From the NCBI GenBank assembly GCA_903813345.2, contig CAIIXF020000007.1, forward strand, positions 25,469,564-25,533,563: a DNA stretch of 64,000 bases, read 5' to 3'. How positions within the stretch are numbered: position 1 is the stretch's first letter; every line of letters starts with the position of its first letter. This document shows, in pieces, positions 3,561-25,100 of this stretch. The position numbers and the translations under genes were made by a program. The notes beneath the pieces were generated by a model. It made no database searches, had not been told where the DNA came from, and was given only the letters and a program-made list of their open reading frames with translations. The DNA comes from Owenia fusiformis. Taxonomy: Eukaryota > Annelida > Polychaeta > Sabellida > Oweniidae.

Positions 3561-6500
3561 AAGGCTGATTGGTACATTTGTACTGATATTCAGAATGAAA
3601 GGCCCTTCATTGCCTGGGTAGAAAGTACATGGTCTGATGTTATACACCCCTCCTGGTAGGCTTTCCAATGATAAACACACAAACCCCTTCCTGAAAGCCA
3701 ATGCAAAAAAAATCATAAAATTAACAAAATCTCAAACATAACTTGAATTCTGGTACAAATGATTGCAACTGTTAGCAATGTGTGTAAGTTTAAAATAGAA
3801 CAAATATTTTTGGAATAAAAAAAATTCCATAAAAGAACATTAACATTGATTCTGTACCTGAAATCTCCTGATTGTTTTTTAGTGAAGGCACCCGGTGCAC
3901 TAGGGTTACTACAAGACACTGCTATCACCTCAAAGCCAACACTGTACTGCCTGCAATAAGGGTTCTATATTGTGATCAGTTTGCCGGGGGGGGGGGGGGG
4001 TCTGCTGGGTGGGTGTCCCAATAAATCTTGTTTTATATGTACTGTAAATCCCCTTTGGTGTCTATGTTACATACCATGTGCTAGTTTTCAAAATAACTTT
4101 TTTAACCTGATACATAAACACATACATGTACACATGTAAGTGCACCAAAGAAGAAAATTCACACATGCCTTGTATTTCCCTTAAAAATTTCTCATGATTC
4201 TGGTACTACCCGATTAACTTCAATTTCTTAGCTTGATAACAGTGGGTAAAGCTCTCATAATAGTTCAAGACATTGTCTCATATTTGCATTTTGCAATACA
4301 ATCAATGACGATTTTATGTGTACTATAGATGAAGTAACTTAATGGAAAGAGTACTTACTTTGGGCCTTTCAGCTCAATTAGTATACAGTTAGCTGTACTT
4401 GTGTTGTCTATCTTCACCTGATAGATGGGGTTGTTCTGATAGGTCTCTCTGTAGTTGCCACATCCCCCTGCTGTTTTACCTTTCCACTCCCCACTACACT
4501 GTAATGAGTTTAATACAACAATTTATCGATTTTAAGCGAGTTGATTAATTCATTCCACTTTTTGAATACACAAACTTTTCAGATGAAGAAACATTCATAT
4601 AGCGCATAAATTCTAATGCCAGTCACCCGAGGGCATTGTTGACATCAATATGTACTCTTGGCAATATTTGACACAAATAATATTTTGTGATTTTGAAATC
4701 TTGGTACTATTAATTTTTCCTGAGATTAGTTTTTTATATTTAGATACTATTACTTTTGCTGATTGGGTGATTTCTCAAAATTTGTTTTGCATTCAGTTTT
4801 TACAGTTCTTCATGTGTAAATATATTTTAGAGTACTTACCGTATTCTCTGTAATTAGCGCCCAGGGCGTTTAGAAAATTGAAAATACATTATTTAGACCA
4901 TTCTAATAAGCGCCCATGTATGAAAGAAATCAGAAATCCCGAGGAATTTCATGTATGGCAATTTTTCTTGACAAGAATGCATTTTCTTCAACATATTTTT
5001 ATAATAATATGACAAGTGCTGTTATTGGAGAGAATACGGTAAAGATCGCTTAGACAATATTGACAGTGGTTGAAGACCCGTCTATGTCTAATTTATTTCC
5101 GGCACGCCCACTTTGTCATTATCGCCGATTACCTTCAATATTTCCACTAGAGACTGCTGGATATCGATCTAAAGTTATACATTATTTCTAATTTGATGAG
5201 AGATCATCATAATTCGTGCAAAAGTCGTGTAAAAGTCGAGAAACATTAAAAAGAAACCAGAAAGTTCACGACCTTGACATGCGCAGAACATCTGCGCAGT
5301 AGCTTTTGAAATTTCTGAATGCCGATAAAGAACAATTCCTTCATTCATTATGGACTATTTGGAGACAATATTAGCATGGTATGGTGTGGGAAGCACCCAT
5401 CGATAGATATGTATCGAGAGGATGCATAGAATTACAAAACGCGTCGTGTTTACAGCAGTTTTAGGGTAAGTACTCTATTATCGCCCGCTCCTGGATTTTG
5501 AGAAATATTTTTTTCCTGATATATTCTTCAATTCTTGTTGATTCCTCGATGTTTCTTGGACTTTGTGAAGCGGGGTGGGCGCTTATTAGAGAGTGGGCGG
5601 TAATTACAGAGAATACGGTATATGTATTAAACTCACTGATTTTTCATATTTTGGAATGTAAGGTTCTCCAATCTTGTCCAATGAGAAAGGAGCCGTGGAG
5701 TAAACTCTGAGGGTGTAGTGAATGGTATTGCTCTTCTCATACTGAGAGATGACTAGAGTGTATTGGGACGTCCCGGCAGGCTCCACCATTTGGCACAAGT
5801 AATGGGGACTGTTGATTCTTACGCCATCTTTATATGGCGCTGGCTCATCTGGAGAAAACATAAATTAGACTTTTAAGAAATGTAACATTGCTACCACTAC
5901 AATTCAGGTAGAGCATCAAACCTTGGATTTACAGTTAGTAGAGCATCAGACTTCAGATTTGAAGGTCTTAAATGTGATTCAGGGCAAGTAATTCAGTTTT
6001 TTTCAGTTCAGGCTTGTTACACTGCACTTAGCATACCCAGGAGGGTATCCCGTCTGGTCGCTATGTTCACTATCAATATACTCACAAGGATTGACTATTG
6101 ACTAGACTATCTAAAACCCACAAGCATATAATATTTATTGAATATTCTACCACAGGGCAGGATATACTAAATGTACTCACAAGGGCAGAATATTTACTAA
6201 ATGTACTCACAAGGGCAGAATATTTACTAAATGTAACTCACAAGGGCAGAATATTTCCTAAATGTACTCACAAGGGCAGAATATTTCCTAAATGTACTCA
6301 CAAGTGCAGAATATTTACTAAATGTAACTCACAAGGGTAGAATATTTCCTATAAATGTACTCACAAGGGCAGAATATTTACTAAATGTACTCACAAGGGC
6401 AGAATATTTACTAAATGTAACTCACAAGGGCAGAATATTTCCTAAATGTAACTCACAAGGGCAGAATATTTCCTATAAATGTACTCACAAGGGCAGAATA

Positions 6501-9500
6501 TTTACTAAATGTAACTCACAAGGGTAGAATATTTTCTTGCCAGCAGGTTTATAGACTACAACTGTTATAAACTCCCTGTTGTCAGCAAAGTCATCCTGAA
6601 ATAATACACAATAGTCAAAGATCACACTTAGACTTAGAGGTTCTGAAATGTGCAACAACAGGGGACTCAAATTAAGAAATGATTACCAAAGTTATATGTG
6701 CTGTATATAAAATAGGGCTGATCAACAAATAACGCAAGTAGAGCCCTATCTCATGCAAGTTATATGTGCTGTATATAAAAGGGCTGATCAACAAATAACG
6801 CAAGTAGAGCCCTATCTCATGCAAGTTATATGTGCTGTATATAAAAGGGCTGATCAACAAATAATGCAAGTAGAGCCCTATCTCATGCAAGTTATATGTG
6901 CTGTATATAAAAGGGCTGATCAACAAATAACGCAAGTAGAGCCCTATCTTATGCAAGTTATATGTGCTGTATATAAAAGGGCTGATCAACAAATAACGCA
7001 AGTAGAGCCCTATCTCATGCAAGTTATATGTGCTGTATATAAAAAGGGCTGATCAACAAATAACGCAAGTAGAGCCCTATCTCATGCAAGTTATATGTGC
7101 TGTATATAAAAAGGGCTGATCAACAAATAACGCAAGTAGAGCCCTATCTCATGAAACAGGTGATTGTATGTCAAGTGTTAGGAATCAGAATTGTGTTTCA
7201 GGAAATGAAGGTAGTTAAAAGGTGAACAAAAAGCAAGATGAACTTCAGCCAAAAAATAGTGTAACTGATCTTAGTTTACTGATATTATTCTGCCCAGCAT
7301 CAGCCCTCTTTGATTACACTAATCACAATGCCAGTTAACATAGGTAATGCGAAAGGATAAAATGTACACAGTACTGTATACTTAACCTTGATAGATAAAA
7401 AAAAAATTAGTCCTTAGTGTAAAGGGCCAAGGGTAGTCGAATTTACCTTATCAGTGATATGTCTCGTAAGGAGAATCCAGACCACACAGGGCTGAGGTGC
7501 CCTGACTTCCAACTTATACTGGGGATTGTCTCCTATGGTGTAAGCATCCTTGCGGGGGCCATCTTTAGCAGTCCAAGTGCTACAACATTACAACATAATA
7601 GAATATTTATCATAAAATATAGTAAACCTAATAACAGGAGTGATGAGGATACAAATATGAATATTAGCCTGGGAGAGGGGGAAATTGGATTTCATAGAAT
7701 ACAAAATTCAATTCATTCATTTTTTGAGTGTTATAAAAATGTCATCACATTTAAGAATTATTAGTTTATTACAATAAGGTCAGCTAAAATAATTGATGCA
7801 ACATCTTTGTTTTATCATAATACGTGTATAATGAACATTCAGTACTTTTGTTCATATACACATACAAATGTTACACTGTATGGAAAATGAAAATCTTAGA
7901 CTTAGGCATGGAACCTAAACTAATGATAATGATGAGACAGAATAAACTGTACTTACTGATGCATACAAGTAGTGTGACTGAATATATCTGGATTCCAATT
8001 AAGATATATAACTTCATAGAACTTCATCATTGATTCATAGTCTATCCAGAATACTCCTGGAAACAAAACACAAATACAAGTTTAGTACTGGTATAACTCT
8101 ACATGCAAACTATAGTCCACAAAAACAGCCAGTTTTTATGAGGTACATATCTTGATATTATGAGGCTAATAGCCATCAATTCTAGTCAAGAAGATATGTT
8201 TTTTCTACAATGGTGTACGTACCATTGTCATATTGCTGGGCACTTTTGGGGTCATAATTGCATAGTCTCTGGAGCTCAGGTGTCCAGTGAGTGGTATCAT
8301 GCTCTGAGAAATTACCCTTCCATCTTAGATGACTCCATGGGTTCTTCAACATGAACAGTTTCTGTCCCTACAATAGAAATTGAAGTTTAACAACTCCATT
8401 TCCGGCAAGGTTGTTCATAAGACAAAAGACATCTTGTGGCTCATCTTCCTTCTTATCTTTTGTTCCGATGTTTCAAGGGTTGTTAGTGTGGATAAAAGTC
8501 TTGGGGGATTAATTTAAGGTGGGTGATTTTGGTATTTGGAGCATATTTTGTAAATGTCCATGAAATCGTGACCATATAGCCAGTAAGAGATAGATCAATG
8601 AAACTGGGTAGAATGGAAGAATGCTTAACAAGGTTTAATTTTATAAAAACCCATGCTGAATGATTGAGGAATTAACATACATTTGTTTGTATATTCCCAT
8701 CTTAAGCAATTTCCTATGATGTTGTTTCCCATGCAGATCCAAAACTCACCTTGACCTCTCTGACATCCAGCATAGCATACGCATGAGTGGGAACAAGTCC
8801 AGCGCGATCTGCCTCGACTTCAGTTAAATCTCCAGTCGCTACAGTAACCAGACAATGTCCTTTGTGAAATCTATCTTGTATTTTCTTAAACACTTTCTCA
8901 GCATCAAACTCCTTGGCACTTGATTTGATTCCAATTCTCTCTGGTATCCAGCCTGTCAGTGCATGGAGGTCAATATTCTGCAAGAGAATGTAAGAAAAAT
9001 CAATTTCATTACGTCCCATCTAATATATACTTCATTTAAATTTCAATTAGTAAGATCCAGCGATATTGATGCTGGTTCTTTAACAGAAGAGGCAGAAAAT
9101 GACAATACAACCAAAAACGGCAAAACAACAAACATTTGCTGGAACCCTCGAATGCCCTCAGCTACAGGCCGTGGAAATATTCGATTAAATTCTTATACCT
9201 CTTAACTCCACCAAATATTAATTTGCACTATATTCAGCATGAAAGCATTTATGTACTGTAAAGTATCTCATTACAAACAAGGGACCTACTGTATACTTAC
9301 AGAATTAGATCCAGGAAAGTCATAGCCTCCCATGACCTTGAGATAGGCTTTCTCCAAGAGGGACACCCACAGTTCATTTCTGTTATTAGAGTAGGAACAC
9401 AATAGTTGACCATCAGCACTCATTGGTAGGTAATCATCTATAATAACCTGCAATGATCAATTGATGCAAGGGTTGAGTTAAGGTTCTAAGAGCAGCTGGT

Positions 9501-16110: not shown

Positions 16111-19100
16111 ATGGAAAATCTCTCGGATCCTGTTTTGTTGAATATTCTACAGTTTCTGCCATTACAGAGCAGAATGACTCTGTCCTGCACTAATAAAAGA
16201 ATGTTGCGTCTCTGTTTTGACAAAATGTTGACAAGGTAACACGTAATTAGACCAATGCTATTCAGAAATAATACCCTCGGTTTCCTCTTGGTCTAATCTG
16301 ACTCTCGTGGGAGGGGGAATTATATTTAAACCAATTCTTTGCTGGATCTACTGAAAATGTGCAAATGCCTGTGACTCAAAAGAAGTATTCAATGATTTAT
16401 CCATGCCTATAGTCAGCAATCTACATATGTACAGTGGGGGGCATAAAGAATTACAAAACCTATGGAAGTTACATGTTGTCGCATATGTAATAAATTCTTA
16501 CCTCAGTGTATTCAGTGCTCTATTTTCTCCGTTATAGTAAGTCCAGATATAGTGGAATTTGTGTCCATAATGACAAATAAGAACTTAAAAATTTGATGTG
16601 GAATTCACATGTTAATGCGGACTCTTCAAATGTTGAGGTGATTTTGGAGCCAGATTACGCCGCAATGTGGGTTGGCTCCCAGAATGCAACATGACACGTG
16701 TCAGCTTTCAAAATGCCATTCCGCCGTTTTGAAATATGTCACGAATAAATAAGGTTACTTGATGTTGCATTCTGGGAGTCAATCCTCCTTGGATCACAAA
16801 CATGGCGATTCATGAAAACATTATTCCGATTTGGTAGGGATTTATCCATCATTTGCAGGTATGAGGCTTTGGATTCCTTTATTGTGCTACTTAAAGTGGA
16901 TGGGAATTATTTTTCTACCACTTGGGAGAGTTTGAGACATGAAACTTAGAATTAAGCTCATTGTGACAACTTTTGAGGGTTGAGATTTATTTTTGTCCCC
17001 CACTTTACATAAAATTGATTCTAAGGAGACTTCATACATTAATCTGTTACAGGGATAGAATTTGAATATCATCATAATTTAATAACTATATGTCACTTCA
17101 ATCTACATTGTAACATGTACCTGTCGTGTCAGTTTTTAGGGCCCAATGTTTTCGCTACAGCTACATACACCTGTATGTACATTTACATGTACTGTACTGA
17201 TGCAATTAGTTAATTACATGTGCAGTAGTTTGTAATTTTTTTCTTTATTTTTCAGGTGTACAACCTTTAGCGACAACTTCTGTCTAACAGACACCTGTTT
17301 CAGAACCTACATTAAGCAGTGCAATAATGGAAAACATATCTCCGTCCTTAATCTAAATAATGTTTACTGGATAGCAAGAAACAAGCTTTTACCTCAGATT
17401 AAGAAATGCACCATGCTGCGAGAACTTCATGTTAAAGGCACTAAAATCACCCCAAAAGACTTTGAAGCACTGTTGCCATGTTTTCAAGAATTGCAAACAT
17501 TAGCATTTTCATTTGAAAAAATATCTGATCTGAAAAAAGACAATTTTTCTGACTGCCAAGAATCACTGTCTCACATAAAACAGCTTTGTATTGAAGTTAG
17601 CCATCCTTTCAGAGCGGTTACTGGAACTATAACATCAACTTTTATTGGGTATGTCAGCACATTCATAGATTGGTGTACAGCTTTGGAAGAGCTCCATGTA
17701 ACTGCAGGTAAGCTTACAGAACAAAGTGCTCTTCCCATAAATGATTTCCTAACTCAACTGGGTAGAGTATTTAATCTCAAACCAATTTTTATGTACAACA
17801 TTTGAATTGTCCCATAATGTTTTGTGGAAATATCGCTAAGATTTTCAAAACATACATAAATACAGTGCAAATGACATCAGTGTTGGAATATTGCAATGAT
17901 AACAGTTTACACTCATCGTTGTAATTCAAAACCAAGTCTATTTTAAAAGAAATAACTATGAAAACCTCTGGCCTACTGCTAATGATATCCCTTGTGCTGC
18001 AGTGAAGTAGATGAAAACCTCTATGAATGATCTAATGATTCCAGAACATTGTTAATATGTAGTAAAACCTATCTAAGTAAAGAACACTTGTGGTACACAT
18101 GTCACTGTACATGTACATGACTTTTCAAGCATATTTTGAATTGAATGAAAAATATTTCTTTAGAAACTATGATTATACAATGTAGTGATATCAATATTTT
18201 CAGGAATATGTCATAGGATGAATGAAGAATTGTTCCACTTTACAATTGATGAAAATGCAATGAGCAACTTACGTGTATACACACACGCAACTGGGCGAGA
18301 GAATATAACAATGAACCTCATATTCTGTGGGATCATGAAACATCTTGGAAAATTTAGTTTCATTTGGAAGATTTTCCACATGCGTTCTTTACTTCTTGAA
18401 TTGGAATTAAACCCAGAGTTTGATAAGGACAGTAAGCAGATATTAACAAACATGGCTCAACTGAAGAGTTTGGACCTCTTAGACAGCTCTAGTGCACACT
18501 CCCTTCCAAGCAATGATACCACACCCTTGTCAGATGCTATAAATTTACGCTTTCTGAGATTACAGAAATGGGGAATTGAAGCCAAGGAACTTGCTATTCT
18601 GCTAAGTAATTTGTCCAAGTTGCGTTCTTTGTGTCTAGAGCAATGCTGCTTTGTCATGCTAGAATCGGGGGATGAAAGAGGAAAACGGCGAGCCAACATG
18701 CATGGTATTGAGGCTATATCTAAACACTGTCCAAATCTGGAATATCTGAATCTCAGTGGTATTTGCAACCCAAAGGATGAGCAAATCTTGCCCATGTCAC
18801 GAATCCTCAGTACTCATGTTCATATTACTTTCCCTGATGTCATAAGCAAAATGAAAAGTAAGCATTTTTATAGTTAGGATTCTTTACATGAGCCTCCACT
18901 GTTAATAATAATATAATAAGTATTTTGCTAATGTTGCTCTAAAACTTACATTATATTGCTGTTCGCACAGAAAGAATCAATTTTGTGAATACTGTACGTG
19001 TATTCAATGGTAGACTGAAGGAGGATAATTTTACATTACTAGTATTACATTTCAGATTTGAGAGGATTGGCTATTTCCTTGTGTCACTTGGATGACAACA

Positions 19101-22100
19101 GGCCAGCTGAATGTGCAGTCGTTGATGATGCCAAAGATGAAGACCACAAAGTACTTGGGAAAAATACAAAATGAGTTGCAAGGAAAAAAAGAAAGTGTGA
19201 TACACCAGGTGAAAATAAATTACATGTACCACCATTGTATTGAATATAAATCATTTTAGTGATGGTAGCAATAGTTGTTGGAGAATAAAGTAAATGAAGA
19301 TTAAAGTAGATGAGAAATTCTGATTTTAAATGAAAGGCAAATCAACTTTTTCAAATTTTTTATATAGCGGATGGGGTTTTCAAAAATGGCAAAATCCACT
19401 TTACTTATTTTTCCACAACTTTGAACATTCAGACACTTACGTATAATTCTTTTATTTGTTAAAAGTAAAGATGGATAATGGTATGAAAGCACATGACTAT
19501 TGATTACTCACCCATTCTTTTAACAGAACAGACTTACAATAAACAATAATAACAGTATTTTAAAACTCTAGCACATGCACAATAGATCATATGTTTGTGT
19601 TGCAAATCATGTGGTTGCACCTTACTCTTAGCTAATGGTATTTGACGTGAATACATTTTAAAATCGTTACATGTCTCTTTGAATACACCCTGTATAGTGG
19701 TGGTATAGTGATCTTTTTATGTACAAGTAAATATAACATGATGGCATTGTATTCAATTGTAATCCACTTGTTACATAAAAAACACAATATTTGCATACCT
19801 ATTTATTGTTCTCTCAATGATTTCAGACAAAGATGGAAATTGCCCTATGCAGGTGATAGCAGAGGGCTGTCCAAATATGGAAGAATTCGAACTAGTCACA
19901 ACATACTTTGAATCTGCCCTAGCTGAGAATCAGATATCTCCATCATCACAGAAATTCAGATATTGGTAAATTACATGCTTTATGATAGGTTGAACAACAC
20001 AGAATTTCAGATATTGGTAAATTACATGCTTTATGATAGGTTGAACAACACAGAAATTCAGATATTGGTAAATAACATGCTTTATGATAGGTTGAACAAC
20101 ACAGAATTTCAGATATTGGTAAATTACATGCTTTATGATAGGTTGAACAACACAGAAATTCAGATATTGGTAAATTACATGCTTTATGATAGGTTGAACA
20201 ACACAGAAATTCAGATATTGGTAAATTGCATGCTTTATGATAGGTTGAACAACACAGAAATTCAGATATTGGTAAATTACATGCTTTATGATAGGTTGAA
20301 CAACACAGAAATTCAGATATTGGTAAATTGCATGCTTTATGATAGGTTGAACAACACAGAATTTCAGATATTGGTAAATTGCATGCTTTATGATAGGTTC
20401 AACAACACAGAAATTCAGATATTGGTAAATTACATGCTTTATGATAGGTTGAACAACACAGAAATTCAGATATTGGTAAATTACATGCTTTATGATAGGT
20501 TGAACATCACAGAAATTCAGATATTGGTAAATTACATGCTTTATGATAGGTTGAACAACACAGAATTTCAGATATTGGTAAATTGCATGCTTTATGATAG
20601 GTTGAACAACACAGAATTTCAGATATTGGTAAATTACATGCTTTATGATAGGTTGAACAACACAGAAATTCAGATATTGGTAAATAACATGCTTTATGAT
20701 AGGTTGAACAACACAGAAATTCAGATATTGGTAAATTACATGCTTTATGATAGGTTGAACAACACAGAAATTCAGATATTGGTAAATTACATGCTTTATG
20801 ATAGGTTGAACAACACAGAAATTCAGATATTGGTAAATTGCATGCTTTATGATAGGTTGAACAACACAGAATTTCAGATATTGGTAAATTGCATGCTTTA
20901 TGATAGGTTGAACAACACAGAAATTCAGATATTGGTAAATTACATGCTTTATGATAGGTTGAACAACACAGAATTTCAGATATTGGTAAATTACATGCTT
21001 TATGATAGGTTGAACAACACAGAAATTCAGATATTGGTAAATAACATGCTTTATGATAGGTTGAACAACACAGAAATTCAGATATTGGTAAATAACATGC
21101 TTTATGATAGGTTGAACAACACAGAATTTCAGATATTGGTAAATTACATGCTTTATGATAGGTTGAACAACACAGAAATTCAGATATTGGTAAATAACAT
21201 GCTTTATGATAGGTTGAACAACACAGAATTTCAGATATTGGTAAATTACATGCTTTATGATAGGTTGAACAACACAGAAATTCAGATATTGGTAAATAAC
21301 ATGCTTTATGATAGGTTGAACAACACAGAAATTCAGATATTGGTAAATTACATACTTTATGATAGGTTGAACAACACAGAATTTCAGATATTGGTAAATT
21401 ACATGCTTTATGATAGGTTGAACAACACAGAAATTCAGATATTGGTAAATTACATGCTTTATGATAGGTTGAACAACACAGAAATTCAGATATTGGTAAA
21501 TTACATACTTTATGATAGGTTGAACAACAAAGAATTTCAGATATTGGTAAATTACATGCTTTATGATAGGTTGAACAACACAGAAATTCAGATATTGGTA
21601 AATTACTTGGTTCATTTTAGGTTGAACAACACAGAATTTCAGATATTGGTAAATTACATACTTTATGATAGGTTGAACAACACAGAATTTCAGATTTTGG
21701 TAAATTGCATGCTTTATGATAGGTTGAACAAAACAGAATTTTAGATATTGGTAAATTACACACTTTATGATAGCTCCAACAGCACAGAATGGCAAGTACA
21801 AGTTACATTACAGATATAGATAAAAATGATAGCTCCATTTGTATTGCAGTTCTGGTACCAGAAATGTGTTGGAGCATGACCTTTCTCATATTGCCAAGTG
21901 GTATTATCTGAAGAAACTCACACTAGGTGCGATACCAAGTAAGTTAGTTGCATTTTTTCATATTCAATATTCATTTACCTTTTAGAATACAAATCTTAAT
22001 AATATTTTAGAATACATATTAAACCACAAGCTTATAAATAAGTTACTTTTAATACAGGGAGTGACAAGTTTATAGCCTGCATCTATGTTGACATGACAGT

Positions 22101-25100
22101 TCCAGTGTCCTAGACTTGTCACACAAATCATTGACCATATTTGAAGCAATTCTATCTCCTAGCTGCAATCAAATAACTGTTTTGGTAACTATGTCACCAG
22201 TACACCGTAAGTGGTGATTAAAAGTTTTGTGGAGGGTTTTCAGCGTTGGCATCTGTAACACAGTATCTATAAGAGATTCTGGTGTCTGTAACAAATTCTG
22301 GTGTCTGTAACAAATAGTAGGTGGTGATATTTTTCATGTTAATGCCTTGTTGTTCACTTTTGCATTACTTATTTCAATATATTTGTAGACATTGACAAAG
22401 GGGACTTTCTGGTGGAGATCGCGGAACAGTGCCCATATATTCAGGTGCTCTCTCTTGCTTTCATAGGGATGACAGGGCACTGCAAGTATGACGCCTCTCT
22501 CAATAAAGCTCTTCCATTAATGAACAATCTGAATGATTTCAGGTAGAGATGTACTTTTAATTGGTATTAAAACTACATTTGTATCATTTGCATGAAGGGT
22601 GAGTTTAGCACATTCTTCAGAAATGTTTACATATTTCCAACATTCAATTATTCAATATTTGTTTTTAGTAAATTATCACTTTTCTGGGTAGTAACAGATA
22701 TACAACATGATGGCATGTACTTGTAATTTTCAAAAGGATGACATGTACTTGTAATTTTCAAAAGGATGACATGTACTTGTAATTTTCAAAAGGATGCAGC
22801 ACCTGAGACCTATTACTATTTCACTATCATATTCCTCACTCAGGGCTTGCATTAAAGGCGTCCCATACATGTTAAGGACTCAAAAATAATTTGGAGGACG
22901 CAAAAATTGAAAATATTTCCGTTTTTTGGATGCAAATTTTTTTTAGGTCAATACTACAATGTCTTTACAACGATACCTAACAAAAACAAATAATTATGAT
23001 CTCTCACCTTTATTTGAATCGTAAATAAGGCTCAACATGTTGAATATTTACAAATAATCATGATTCTCTCGAATTTTTTCGACTTTGTTTATTTTTAGAT
23101 TTGAAACCATGACACGCCACGGTTTTTCCTATTCAGAAACAAATATTAGGTTATTCATGAAATAAAATGTATTCATTGTCGAATGAACGAACATGCATTT
23201 ATTCAGTCCGTACTTAACGTTTACTTCCGTTTTAAATTCGCGGCAAGAAATCACAAACTGAAAGGTGTTTTGGTAAAAAATGCTTTTAAAATAAAGTTAT
23301 ACCTCAAAACAGGCTAGAAATAAGGGACACACTTTTTTTTCAAAGGACACACTTTAAAAAAAAATTGCGTCTTTGGGACTCACAAATTTTCTAACCTAAT
23401 GGAAGCGCTGTACTTCTTGATTGGTTTACAGGCCTAACACATGGCCAAAAATAATAAGTCATAGTTGTCCTAACCAGTAGTATGACATCACTAAAATACA
23501 TATTCCCCTGGCATATGAATAGTAAAACAAATATTTCATTCCACCAGTGACATCAATATTGTATCTACAATACAAGGTCATCATGGAAACGATAAAGGAG
23601 TGGTATCGATATGGTGAATTTTTTGAACACGCATTTCTCATAAACCAGTCAGTCATCAAAACATTCTGAAAATTTTACACATCGTCATTTTAATGGTCAT
23701 CTTACGGATGGTAACATTATATTTGAATTATATATATATAATAACTTTTCTCTATATTGTTTTAGAAAACACATCAGACACTTCTTTCGTTCTTGGTATC
23801 ATATGTTCGGAATGAAATGAAACATCTATCCGAACCTCATTGAAACAAAACGACATAAACACAACGTGTTTAGGTCTCTCTATATTGTAATTGTACAAAG
23901 GAAAATTTGGTTGATTTTAAAAAAGTAATGTTAATGAAATAAAAGGTTTATCTTAATTTTCATCTATTTTGGGGGGCTTTGTTTTTGCATACTTTTTGTT
24001 AACTTTGGATAATTATAATAAAAACAAAAAATGTTAACAAAAACAGTTATATGAAATATATATAAATAATTTTTGCATTAAATTGTTGCCAATCAGTCAA
24101 CATTACATAAAGTACCCTGTTTTTTACAGGATGTTTTCAATAATTGGTTTAAGAGAAAAACATTGTTGAATTCAGTTCACCATATCGATACCTCTCCTTT
24201 AAAAAATAATAAATTTATAAACATTTTAGGTTGGAACAGCCCAACTTCCCTCTGAGTTCTGCCTTCTTCAAGGCCCTCGGAAAGTGTAGGGAGTTGAGAA
24301 GGTTTTGTTGCATTGCGAAAAACAGTAAATTTGTGCCTAAAGATATCACTGCCTTCGTTCAAGAGGTAACTATTGCAAGTTGCAAAACAATGCAGGGAAA
24401 AAATCTGAACTTTTTAAAGTTTTGTTTCTTATTCTACCTCATGTTAAATATGACCATAAAAGTGACAATTTCTCATTGTTTGTTTCCCAATACTGATCAT
24501 GATTTCTGTAACACCATACTTGATAGAGACTTCAAAATGAACATTCTTTTATCTCAACCTGTTTATCTTATATATTGTATTTTATAAATGTATCGTTGCG
24601 TTGTAGAGCAAACACCTTGCTGTGTTACAACTGCTGACTGGTGCAACTATTGCAGCCTGTAACGCCCTAGAGAAAGCAGTGAAGAATATGTGAGTACAGT
24701 TTAACATAGCTAGCATTGTTTCAAAGTGAAGTCGGGCAAATGTACTTTTAAATAAAAAAGCCTGTACTTATTTCATCCTTCGATCACAGGGCTTCAAAAT
24801 CCAGAATATATTCTTTCTTTTTACACCCTGCGATAAGCAGTTAGCATTTCCCCGATTAAGAACTCGCAATCTGATTGGCAGTCGCATCACTGCGACAGAA
24901 ATCATCTATAAGTCATTGCGCATTCATAGATCATAGATCACGTGCTTCAGTTTAATCGCTTCCAAATTGGTTATAGCAGGGGGGAAGAAGGAGGTACGGA
25001 ATAGAAAATAGAAACATATTGATTGACTTTTTATGTCACCATCACAAGTGGTGACATATTGTTATGGTCTCCAACTTTTTATGTCACCACACATTTTTGT

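What the first reader, a model, noticed from the sequence alone, without database searches (positions are those of the whole stretch)
19945..21765. A minisatellite grown from an exon-intron boundary gives FBXL18 36 in-line copies of one 5' splice site
The end of FBXL18 exon 5 (CACAGAAATTCAGATATTG) and its donor GTAAAT are the first unit of a 51-bp array. The GTAAAT hexamer then recurs at exact 51-bp steps from 19966 to 21751 with no indel over 1785 bp. Each unit repeats the upstream exon bases as well, so every copy should look like a genuine donor to U1 snRNA. In the exon frame, use of any later donor brings in a TAA at once, so only the first donor gives full-length protein. The array could act as a splice-site sponge or a source of NMD isoforms, or U1 may simply choose the first site. 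Some units also carry an acceptor-like TTTCAG six bases before the donor.
Basis: partly seen in the sequence, partly recalled or inferred. Interest (0 to 1): 0.85.

Follow-up and report, generated by a model that had tools for sequence, protein, structure and literature searches.

The report
Minisatellite that repeats an exon's splice site
A 51-letter stretch covering the end of one FBXL18 exon and its splice signal has been copied 36 times in a row into the intron; this is a known but rarely described kind of repeat ("mirage"), it is probably harmless because the first copy is the one that counts, and the same thing turns out to be common in this animal's genome.

Summary
A 51-bp unit starts inside FBXL18 coding exon 4 (19827-19965) and is repeated 36 times without an indel, with GTAAAT at every 51-bp step from 19966 to 21751. 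The exon came first: a paralogue on another chromosome has the same exon end and the same donor position and no array. Joining the first donor to the acceptor before 21850 gives a continuous FBXL18 protein (PF19729, 176 bits); each of the 35 later donors gives the same truncated protein ending FRYW-stop.

The kind is already known. Amphioxus Adh3 and globin genes carry "mirages", tandem repeats of exon/intron boundaries, and the human CBS 31-bp VNTR and IFI6 minisatellite have similar anatomy. What I add is scale: the neighbouring CAPN7-like gene in the same window has a second one, and most of 20 tandem-donor arrays sampled genome-wide begin at what looks like a coding exon end, six of them confirmed by homology. 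Acceptor-side versions exist too.

Most likely this is a near-neutral intronic minisatellite seeded by duplicating an exon edge and tolerated because the exon-proximal site is used. A splice-site sponge is unlikely. Low-level truncated, NMD-prone isoforms are possible but untested.

The parts
19827..19965 (+). FBXL18 coding exon 4; its end is the source of the repeat unit
   Evidence: Reading frame continuous with exons 3 and 5; paralogue has the same exon end QISPSxxKFxY|C
19933..19946 (+). Exon bases GATATCTCCATCAT, in register with the array; 11/14 identical to the end of unit 36 (GATAGCTCCAACAG) but 8/14 to the core unit, so the ancestral duplicated block probably took in about 33 exon bases
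   Evidence: In-register comparison; a random local 14-mer reaches 11/14 with P 0.00044
19947..21789 (+). 51-bp minisatellite, 36 units, no indel
   Evidence: TRF and unit alignment
19966..19971 (+). Donor 1, GTAAAT, the productive 5' splice site
   Evidence: Splicing from here to 21850 gives PF19729 176 bits running across the junction; paralogue donor at the same place
20017..21756 (+). Donors 2-36, identical 9-mers TTG|GTAAAT every 51 bp; each gives a stop codon (FRYW*)
21732..21849 (+). Unit 36 (9 differences), then unique or degenerate sequence down to the acceptor TTGTATTGCAG
21850..21938 (+). FBXL18 coding exon 5
16111..16235 (+). FBXL18 coding exon 1 (F-box)
17256..18857 (+). FBXL18 coding exons 2 (17256-17707) and 3 (18204-18857)
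22389..24689 (+). FBXL18 coding exons 6 (22389-22542), 7 (24230-24365) and 8 (24607-24689)
6520..6595 (-). Exon of the neighbouring CAPN7-like gene that ends ...AAAATATTCTACCCTT
6154..6534 (-). Second boundary-spanning minisatellite: 30-32-bp unit repeating the exon end and donor CCCTT|GTGAGT, 12 donors

Best explanation
This is a boundary-spanning ('mirage') minisatellite. The end of FBXL18 coding exon 4 and the start of its intron were duplicated in tandem, and the copies multiplied and homogenised by ordinary minisatellite turnover. The exon-proximal donor stays in use, so the whole array is spliced out as intron and is close to neutral. Shown: anatomy, gene identity, exon-first origin, stop after every later donor, and many similar arrays elsewhere in the genome. 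Inferred: that donor 1 is used in nearly all transcripts, by cross-exon recognition (exon 4 is 139 nt and lies between introns of 969 and 1884 nt), that slips to later donors make at most minor NMD-prone mRNA, and that array growth is by slippage or unequal exchange.
For: Array and steps exact. Spliced protein from donor 1: PF19729 176 bits, aligned through the junction (406-608 to profile 379-580); truncated form 43 bits. Paralogue on C11: same exon end, phase and donor position, no array. The unit matches nowhere else in the genome. Recurring variants and blocks of units show homogenisation, with private changes gathered at the 3' edge (rho 0.43, p 0.009). Second case in the CAPN7-like gene. 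Genome-wide sample: 15 of 20 tandem AG|GTRAGT arrays have an exon-like open frame ending at the first donor; homology runs to the donor, or to within a few residues of it, for UGDH, NCS-1, MINDY-3/4, Ig I-set, Kringle and Rieske. Minigenes with two identical donors 52 nt apart use the upstream one under exon definition (PMC9225289). RT-PCR in amphioxus suggests mirages do not disturb splicing (PMC3087553).
Against: No RNA evidence here. Under intron definition the downstream of two equal donors is preferred (Reed and Maniatis rule, in PMC9225289), and the last donor would leave a 99-nt intron. In human IFI6, two downstream repeats are used as donors (PMC4526556). Donor 1 is weak and no stronger than its 35 copies. 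A stronger-looking site, CAG|GTGATA, lies inside exon 4 after 19852.
Confidence: 0.83

Rival explanations
1. A regulatory rheostat: later donors are used often enough that copy number sets the share of truncated, NMD-degraded FBXL18 mRNA, so array length tunes expression.
For: All 35 later donors are identical to donor 1 and give FRYW*. Downstream donors are favoured under intron definition (PMC9225289). IFI6 uses downstream repeat donors (PMC4526556). The CBS VNTR is polymorphic, 16-21 copies (PMC2630376), and its length has been tied to enzyme activity (title of Lievers 2001, in the same reference list).
Against: No RNA data. The donor columns are no more conserved than chance would allow: six invariant donor columns when 33 of 51 columns are invariant, about 0.06 (computed by hand). 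Similar arrays sit in many unrelated genes.
Confidence: 0.1
2. A splice-site sponge that titrates U1 snRNP.
For: 36 U1 sites per transcript.
Against: Each site pairs weakly with U1 (-5.3 kcal/mol). One ordinary gene cannot plausibly titrate an abundant snRNP (own knowledge). No AATAAA or ATTAAA poly(A) signal in the intron that U1 would need to silence.
Confidence: 0.01
3. The array is coding: the open +1 frame (605 aa, 19927-21744) is a repeat protein.
For: One + frame and one - frame stay open throughout.
Against: A 51-bp unit keeps any stop-free frame open in all copies. The recurring variants all change the amino acid. The FBXL18 frame stops at once, and the Pfam hits to the repeat look like repeat artefacts, with no stretch passing on its own.
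Confidence: 0.01
4. Assembly error in length or position.
For: Tandem arrays are often mis-sized in assemblies; the globin mirage of amphioxus was mis-assembled in the draft (PMC3087553).
Against: Units carry ordered variants rather than a perfect collapse or expansion, the assembly is chromosome-scale, and independent cases occur elsewhere. Exact copy number is not secured.
Confidence: 0.05

Closest known systems
Amphioxus 'mirage' minisatellites (Adh3; globins BflGb6 and BflGb9; PMC3087553)
   Same: Tandem repeats of an exon/intron boundary, units 10-160 bp, donor or acceptor side, copies carrying splice signals, homogenised with edge units left out
   Different: Here 36 copies of 51 bp, in FBXL18 of a genome with 12 chromosome-size contigs that is probably not amphioxus; no RNA or population data
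Human CBS 31-bp VNTR, c.1444_1467+7(16_21) (PMC2630376)
   Same: By its HGVS name, a unit of the last 24 exon bases plus 7 intron bases, repeated in tandem and varying only in copy number and single bases
   Different: 31-bp unit (frameshifting), 16-21 copies, known to be polymorphic
Human IFI6 (6-16, G1P3) minisatellite (Turri 1995; cited in PMC4526556, PMC2572611, PMC3618361)
   Different: 12-bp unit (own knowledge); two downstream repeats are reported as used donors giving protein variants, while here any later donor truncates the protein

Membership tests
Boundary-spanning ('mirage') minisatellite | Tandem unit contains exon end plus intron start of a real gene | tested here: met
   19 exon bases (about 33 with the diverged part) plus donor in each unit; FBXL18 by PF19729 and paralogue
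Boundary-spanning ('mirage') minisatellite | Copies keep splice signals | tested here: met
   36 of 36 donors TTG|GTAAAT
Boundary-spanning ('mirage') minisatellite | Concerted evolution inside, edge units excluded | tested here: met
   3' edge units diverged (rho 0.43, p 0.009). At the 5' edge unit 1 equals the consensus, so it is met at one edge only
Boundary-spanning ('mirage') minisatellite | Both donor and acceptor sides are affected in the genome | tested here: met
   Acceptor-side arrays next to SSF, Nup93, HMA and MINDY-3/4 exons
Boundary-spanning ('mirage') minisatellite | Regular splicing is not disturbed | not testable with these tools
   No RNA data
Boundary-spanning ('mirage') minisatellite | Length instability between haplotypes | not testable with these tools
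   One assembly; the unit was found at one locus only
IFI6-type minisatellite with several used donors | More than one repeat donor is used in mRNA | not testable with these tools
   No RNA data

The most novel reading that the evidence does not exclude
In this genome minisatellites are preferentially born at exon edges (for example from breaks or R-loops at splice sites), giving many genes tandem splice sites and a standing supply of boundary-length variation and possible new introns.
Probability: 0.12. Interest if true: 0.75.

Novelty: new member of a known kind. Interest (0 to 1): 0.5.

Why it matters
It is a natural test of a classic question: how the spliceosome chooses among identical 5' splice sites. 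Here there are 36 in a row, with only the first giving protein. The wider result may matter more. Boundary-spanning minisatellites, described in amphioxus and a few human genes, appear common in this genome, so they are probably under-noticed, can mislead gene prediction, and are a plausible route to new introns.

Tried and rejected
Sponge: rejected on donor strength and stoichiometry. Coding array: rejected. Dispersed satellite or transposon origin: no second locus for the unit. Sequestration of later donors by RNA folding: local accessibility does not set donor 1 apart from the other copies. Six-base microexon between the array acceptor and donor: would also create a stop and the acceptors are poor. 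Overall enrichment of donor motifs among tandem arrays: not shown; AGGTGAGT x3 gives 324 matches against 142 for the reversed motif, AGGTAAGT x3 239 against 352, GTGAGT x3 3225 against 4157, and these are matches, not loci. PDB searches for the CAPN7-like exon and three other exon candidates gave nothing. The original IFI6 paper is not held.

Full report
Observation. The array is real and as described. TRF reports period 51, 36.1 copies, no indels, 19947-21789, and GTAAAT stands at exact 51-bp steps from 19966 to 21751, 36 times. Unit 1 is identical to the consensus and its first 19 bases are the end of an exon.

Gene. Coding exons were placed by frame and splice signals. The spliced protein (610 aa, 3' end not completed) has an F-box and PF19729 LRR_FBXL18 at 176 bits, with a match running from residue 406 to 608 straight through the array junction at 456-457; the product of any later donor scores 43 bits. 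All 35 later donors give the same 457-aa protein ending FRYW. The last donor would make exon 4 1924 nt long instead of 139 and leave a 99-nt intron instead of 1884 nt.

Which came first. A second FBXL18-like gene on contig C11, 41-44% identical over its two long exons, has matching exons, the same exon end (QISPSNHKFNY|C against QISPSSQKFRY|C), the same phase, donor TTG|GTAAGT, and no array in its intron of about 300 bp. So the exon end and the intron are older than the array. The 14 exon bases before unit 1 also resemble the end of unit 36 (11/14, P 0.00044 against random local 14-mers), better than the core units (8/14), which suggests the first duplication took in about 33 exon bases and that the core later drifted and homogenised. 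The unit matches nowhere else in the assembly, with the caveat that the search skips common words.

Turnover. A few common variants (7T, 25A, 26G, 30A and combinations) are shuffled through the array, with short repeated blocks, and private changes concentrate at the 3' edge. This is normal minisatellite behaviour. There is no sign of selection on the donors as such.

Splice choice. The 9-mer is the same in all copies and pairs weakly with U1 (-5.3 kcal/mol; paralogue donor -10.7). Predicted local accessibility does not single out donor 1. What favours donor 1 is position: two identical donors 52 nt apart in a minigene are resolved to the upstream one when the exon is recognised as the unit, and to the downstream one when the intron is (PMC9225289). 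Exon 4 is short and its introns are long, so the first donor is expected to win, but the outcome in this animal is inferred.

Wider survey. The window holds a second case. A CAPN7-like gene on the minus strand (MIT and peptidase C2 matches elsewhere in it) has an exon ending AAAATATTCTACCCTT|GTGAGT, and 12 donors follow at 30-32-bp steps. I then took 20 tandem AG|GTRAGT arrays from whole-genome pattern searches. By open frame, and in most by an acceptor upstream, 15 look like exon ends at the first donor (L066-L068, L070, L071, L073, L075-L077, L079-L082, L084, L085). Homology confirms six: UGDH (46/46 residues to the donor), NCS-1 (to the last residue), MINDY-3/4, Ig I-set, Kringle and Rieske. 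Open-frame length alone is weak evidence (p 0.0005 against background), and the sorting into 15 and 5 was by eye. Eleven control arrays built on the reversed motif were shorter in open frame (7-61) and none looked exon-like, though they were not scanned with Pfam. Arrays of acceptor motifs also abut exons, with the last acceptor at the exon: SSF transporter, Nup93, HMA and MINDY-3/4 by Pfam. MINDY-3/4-type exons appear at both kinds of array about 23 kb apart on C4, so one gene may carry both. In these cases the exon-proximal copy is the one that fits the protein.

Literature. PMC3087553 describes this as 'mirages' in amphioxus, with RT-PCR suggesting that splicing is not disturbed. PMC2630376 gives the human CBS VNTR as c.1444_1467+7(16_21). 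IFI6 is the known case where downstream repeat donors are used (PMC4526556). The present case is a new member of that kind.

Organism. It is not named. The assembly has 12 contigs of 32-62 Mb and 498 Mb in all. Owenia fusiformis has 12 chromosomes (PMC9539403) and, from memory, a genome near 500 Mb, while amphioxus has 19 or 20; this is a guess, not a result.

Limits. No RNA, no second individual, no exon annotation for the genome, a small and motif-chosen sample of arrays, and no demonstrated excess of arrays at exon edges.

Noticed in passing
window 6154-6595, minus strand: Second boundary-spanning minisatellite, in a CAPN7-like gene, 12 copies of CCCTT|GTGAGT at 30-32-bp steps.
   Followed up: yes
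L066-L085 (20 tandem-donor arrays): Most sampled tandem-donor arrays in this genome start at what looks like a coding exon end; six are confirmed by homology.
   Followed up: partly
L101, L102, L105, L106: Acceptor-side counterparts: tandem TTTTCAGG arrays whose last copy is the acceptor of a conserved exon (SSF, HMA, Nup93, MINDY-3/4).
   Followed up: partly
L067 and L079: Units of 33 and 42 bp with no stop codon in the exon frame in the stretch read, so later donors could lengthen the protein by whole repeats.
   Followed up: no
L077 and L106 (C4 about 20.87-20.90 Mb): MINDY-3/4-type exons carry an acceptor-side array and a donor-side array about 23 kb apart, possibly in one gene.
   Followed up: no
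window 19927-21744 (+) and 19930-21807 (-): Long open frames through the array (605 and 625 aa) that a gene predictor could call; they follow from the 51-bp period.
   Followed up: yes
window 19852: CAG|GTGATA inside exon 4 pairs better with U1 (-8.2 kcal/mol) than the real donor.
   Followed up: no
L014 and L015 (C11 about 26.6 Mb): Second FBXL18-like gene, 41-44% identical over its long exons, with the same exon structure.
   Followed up: yes
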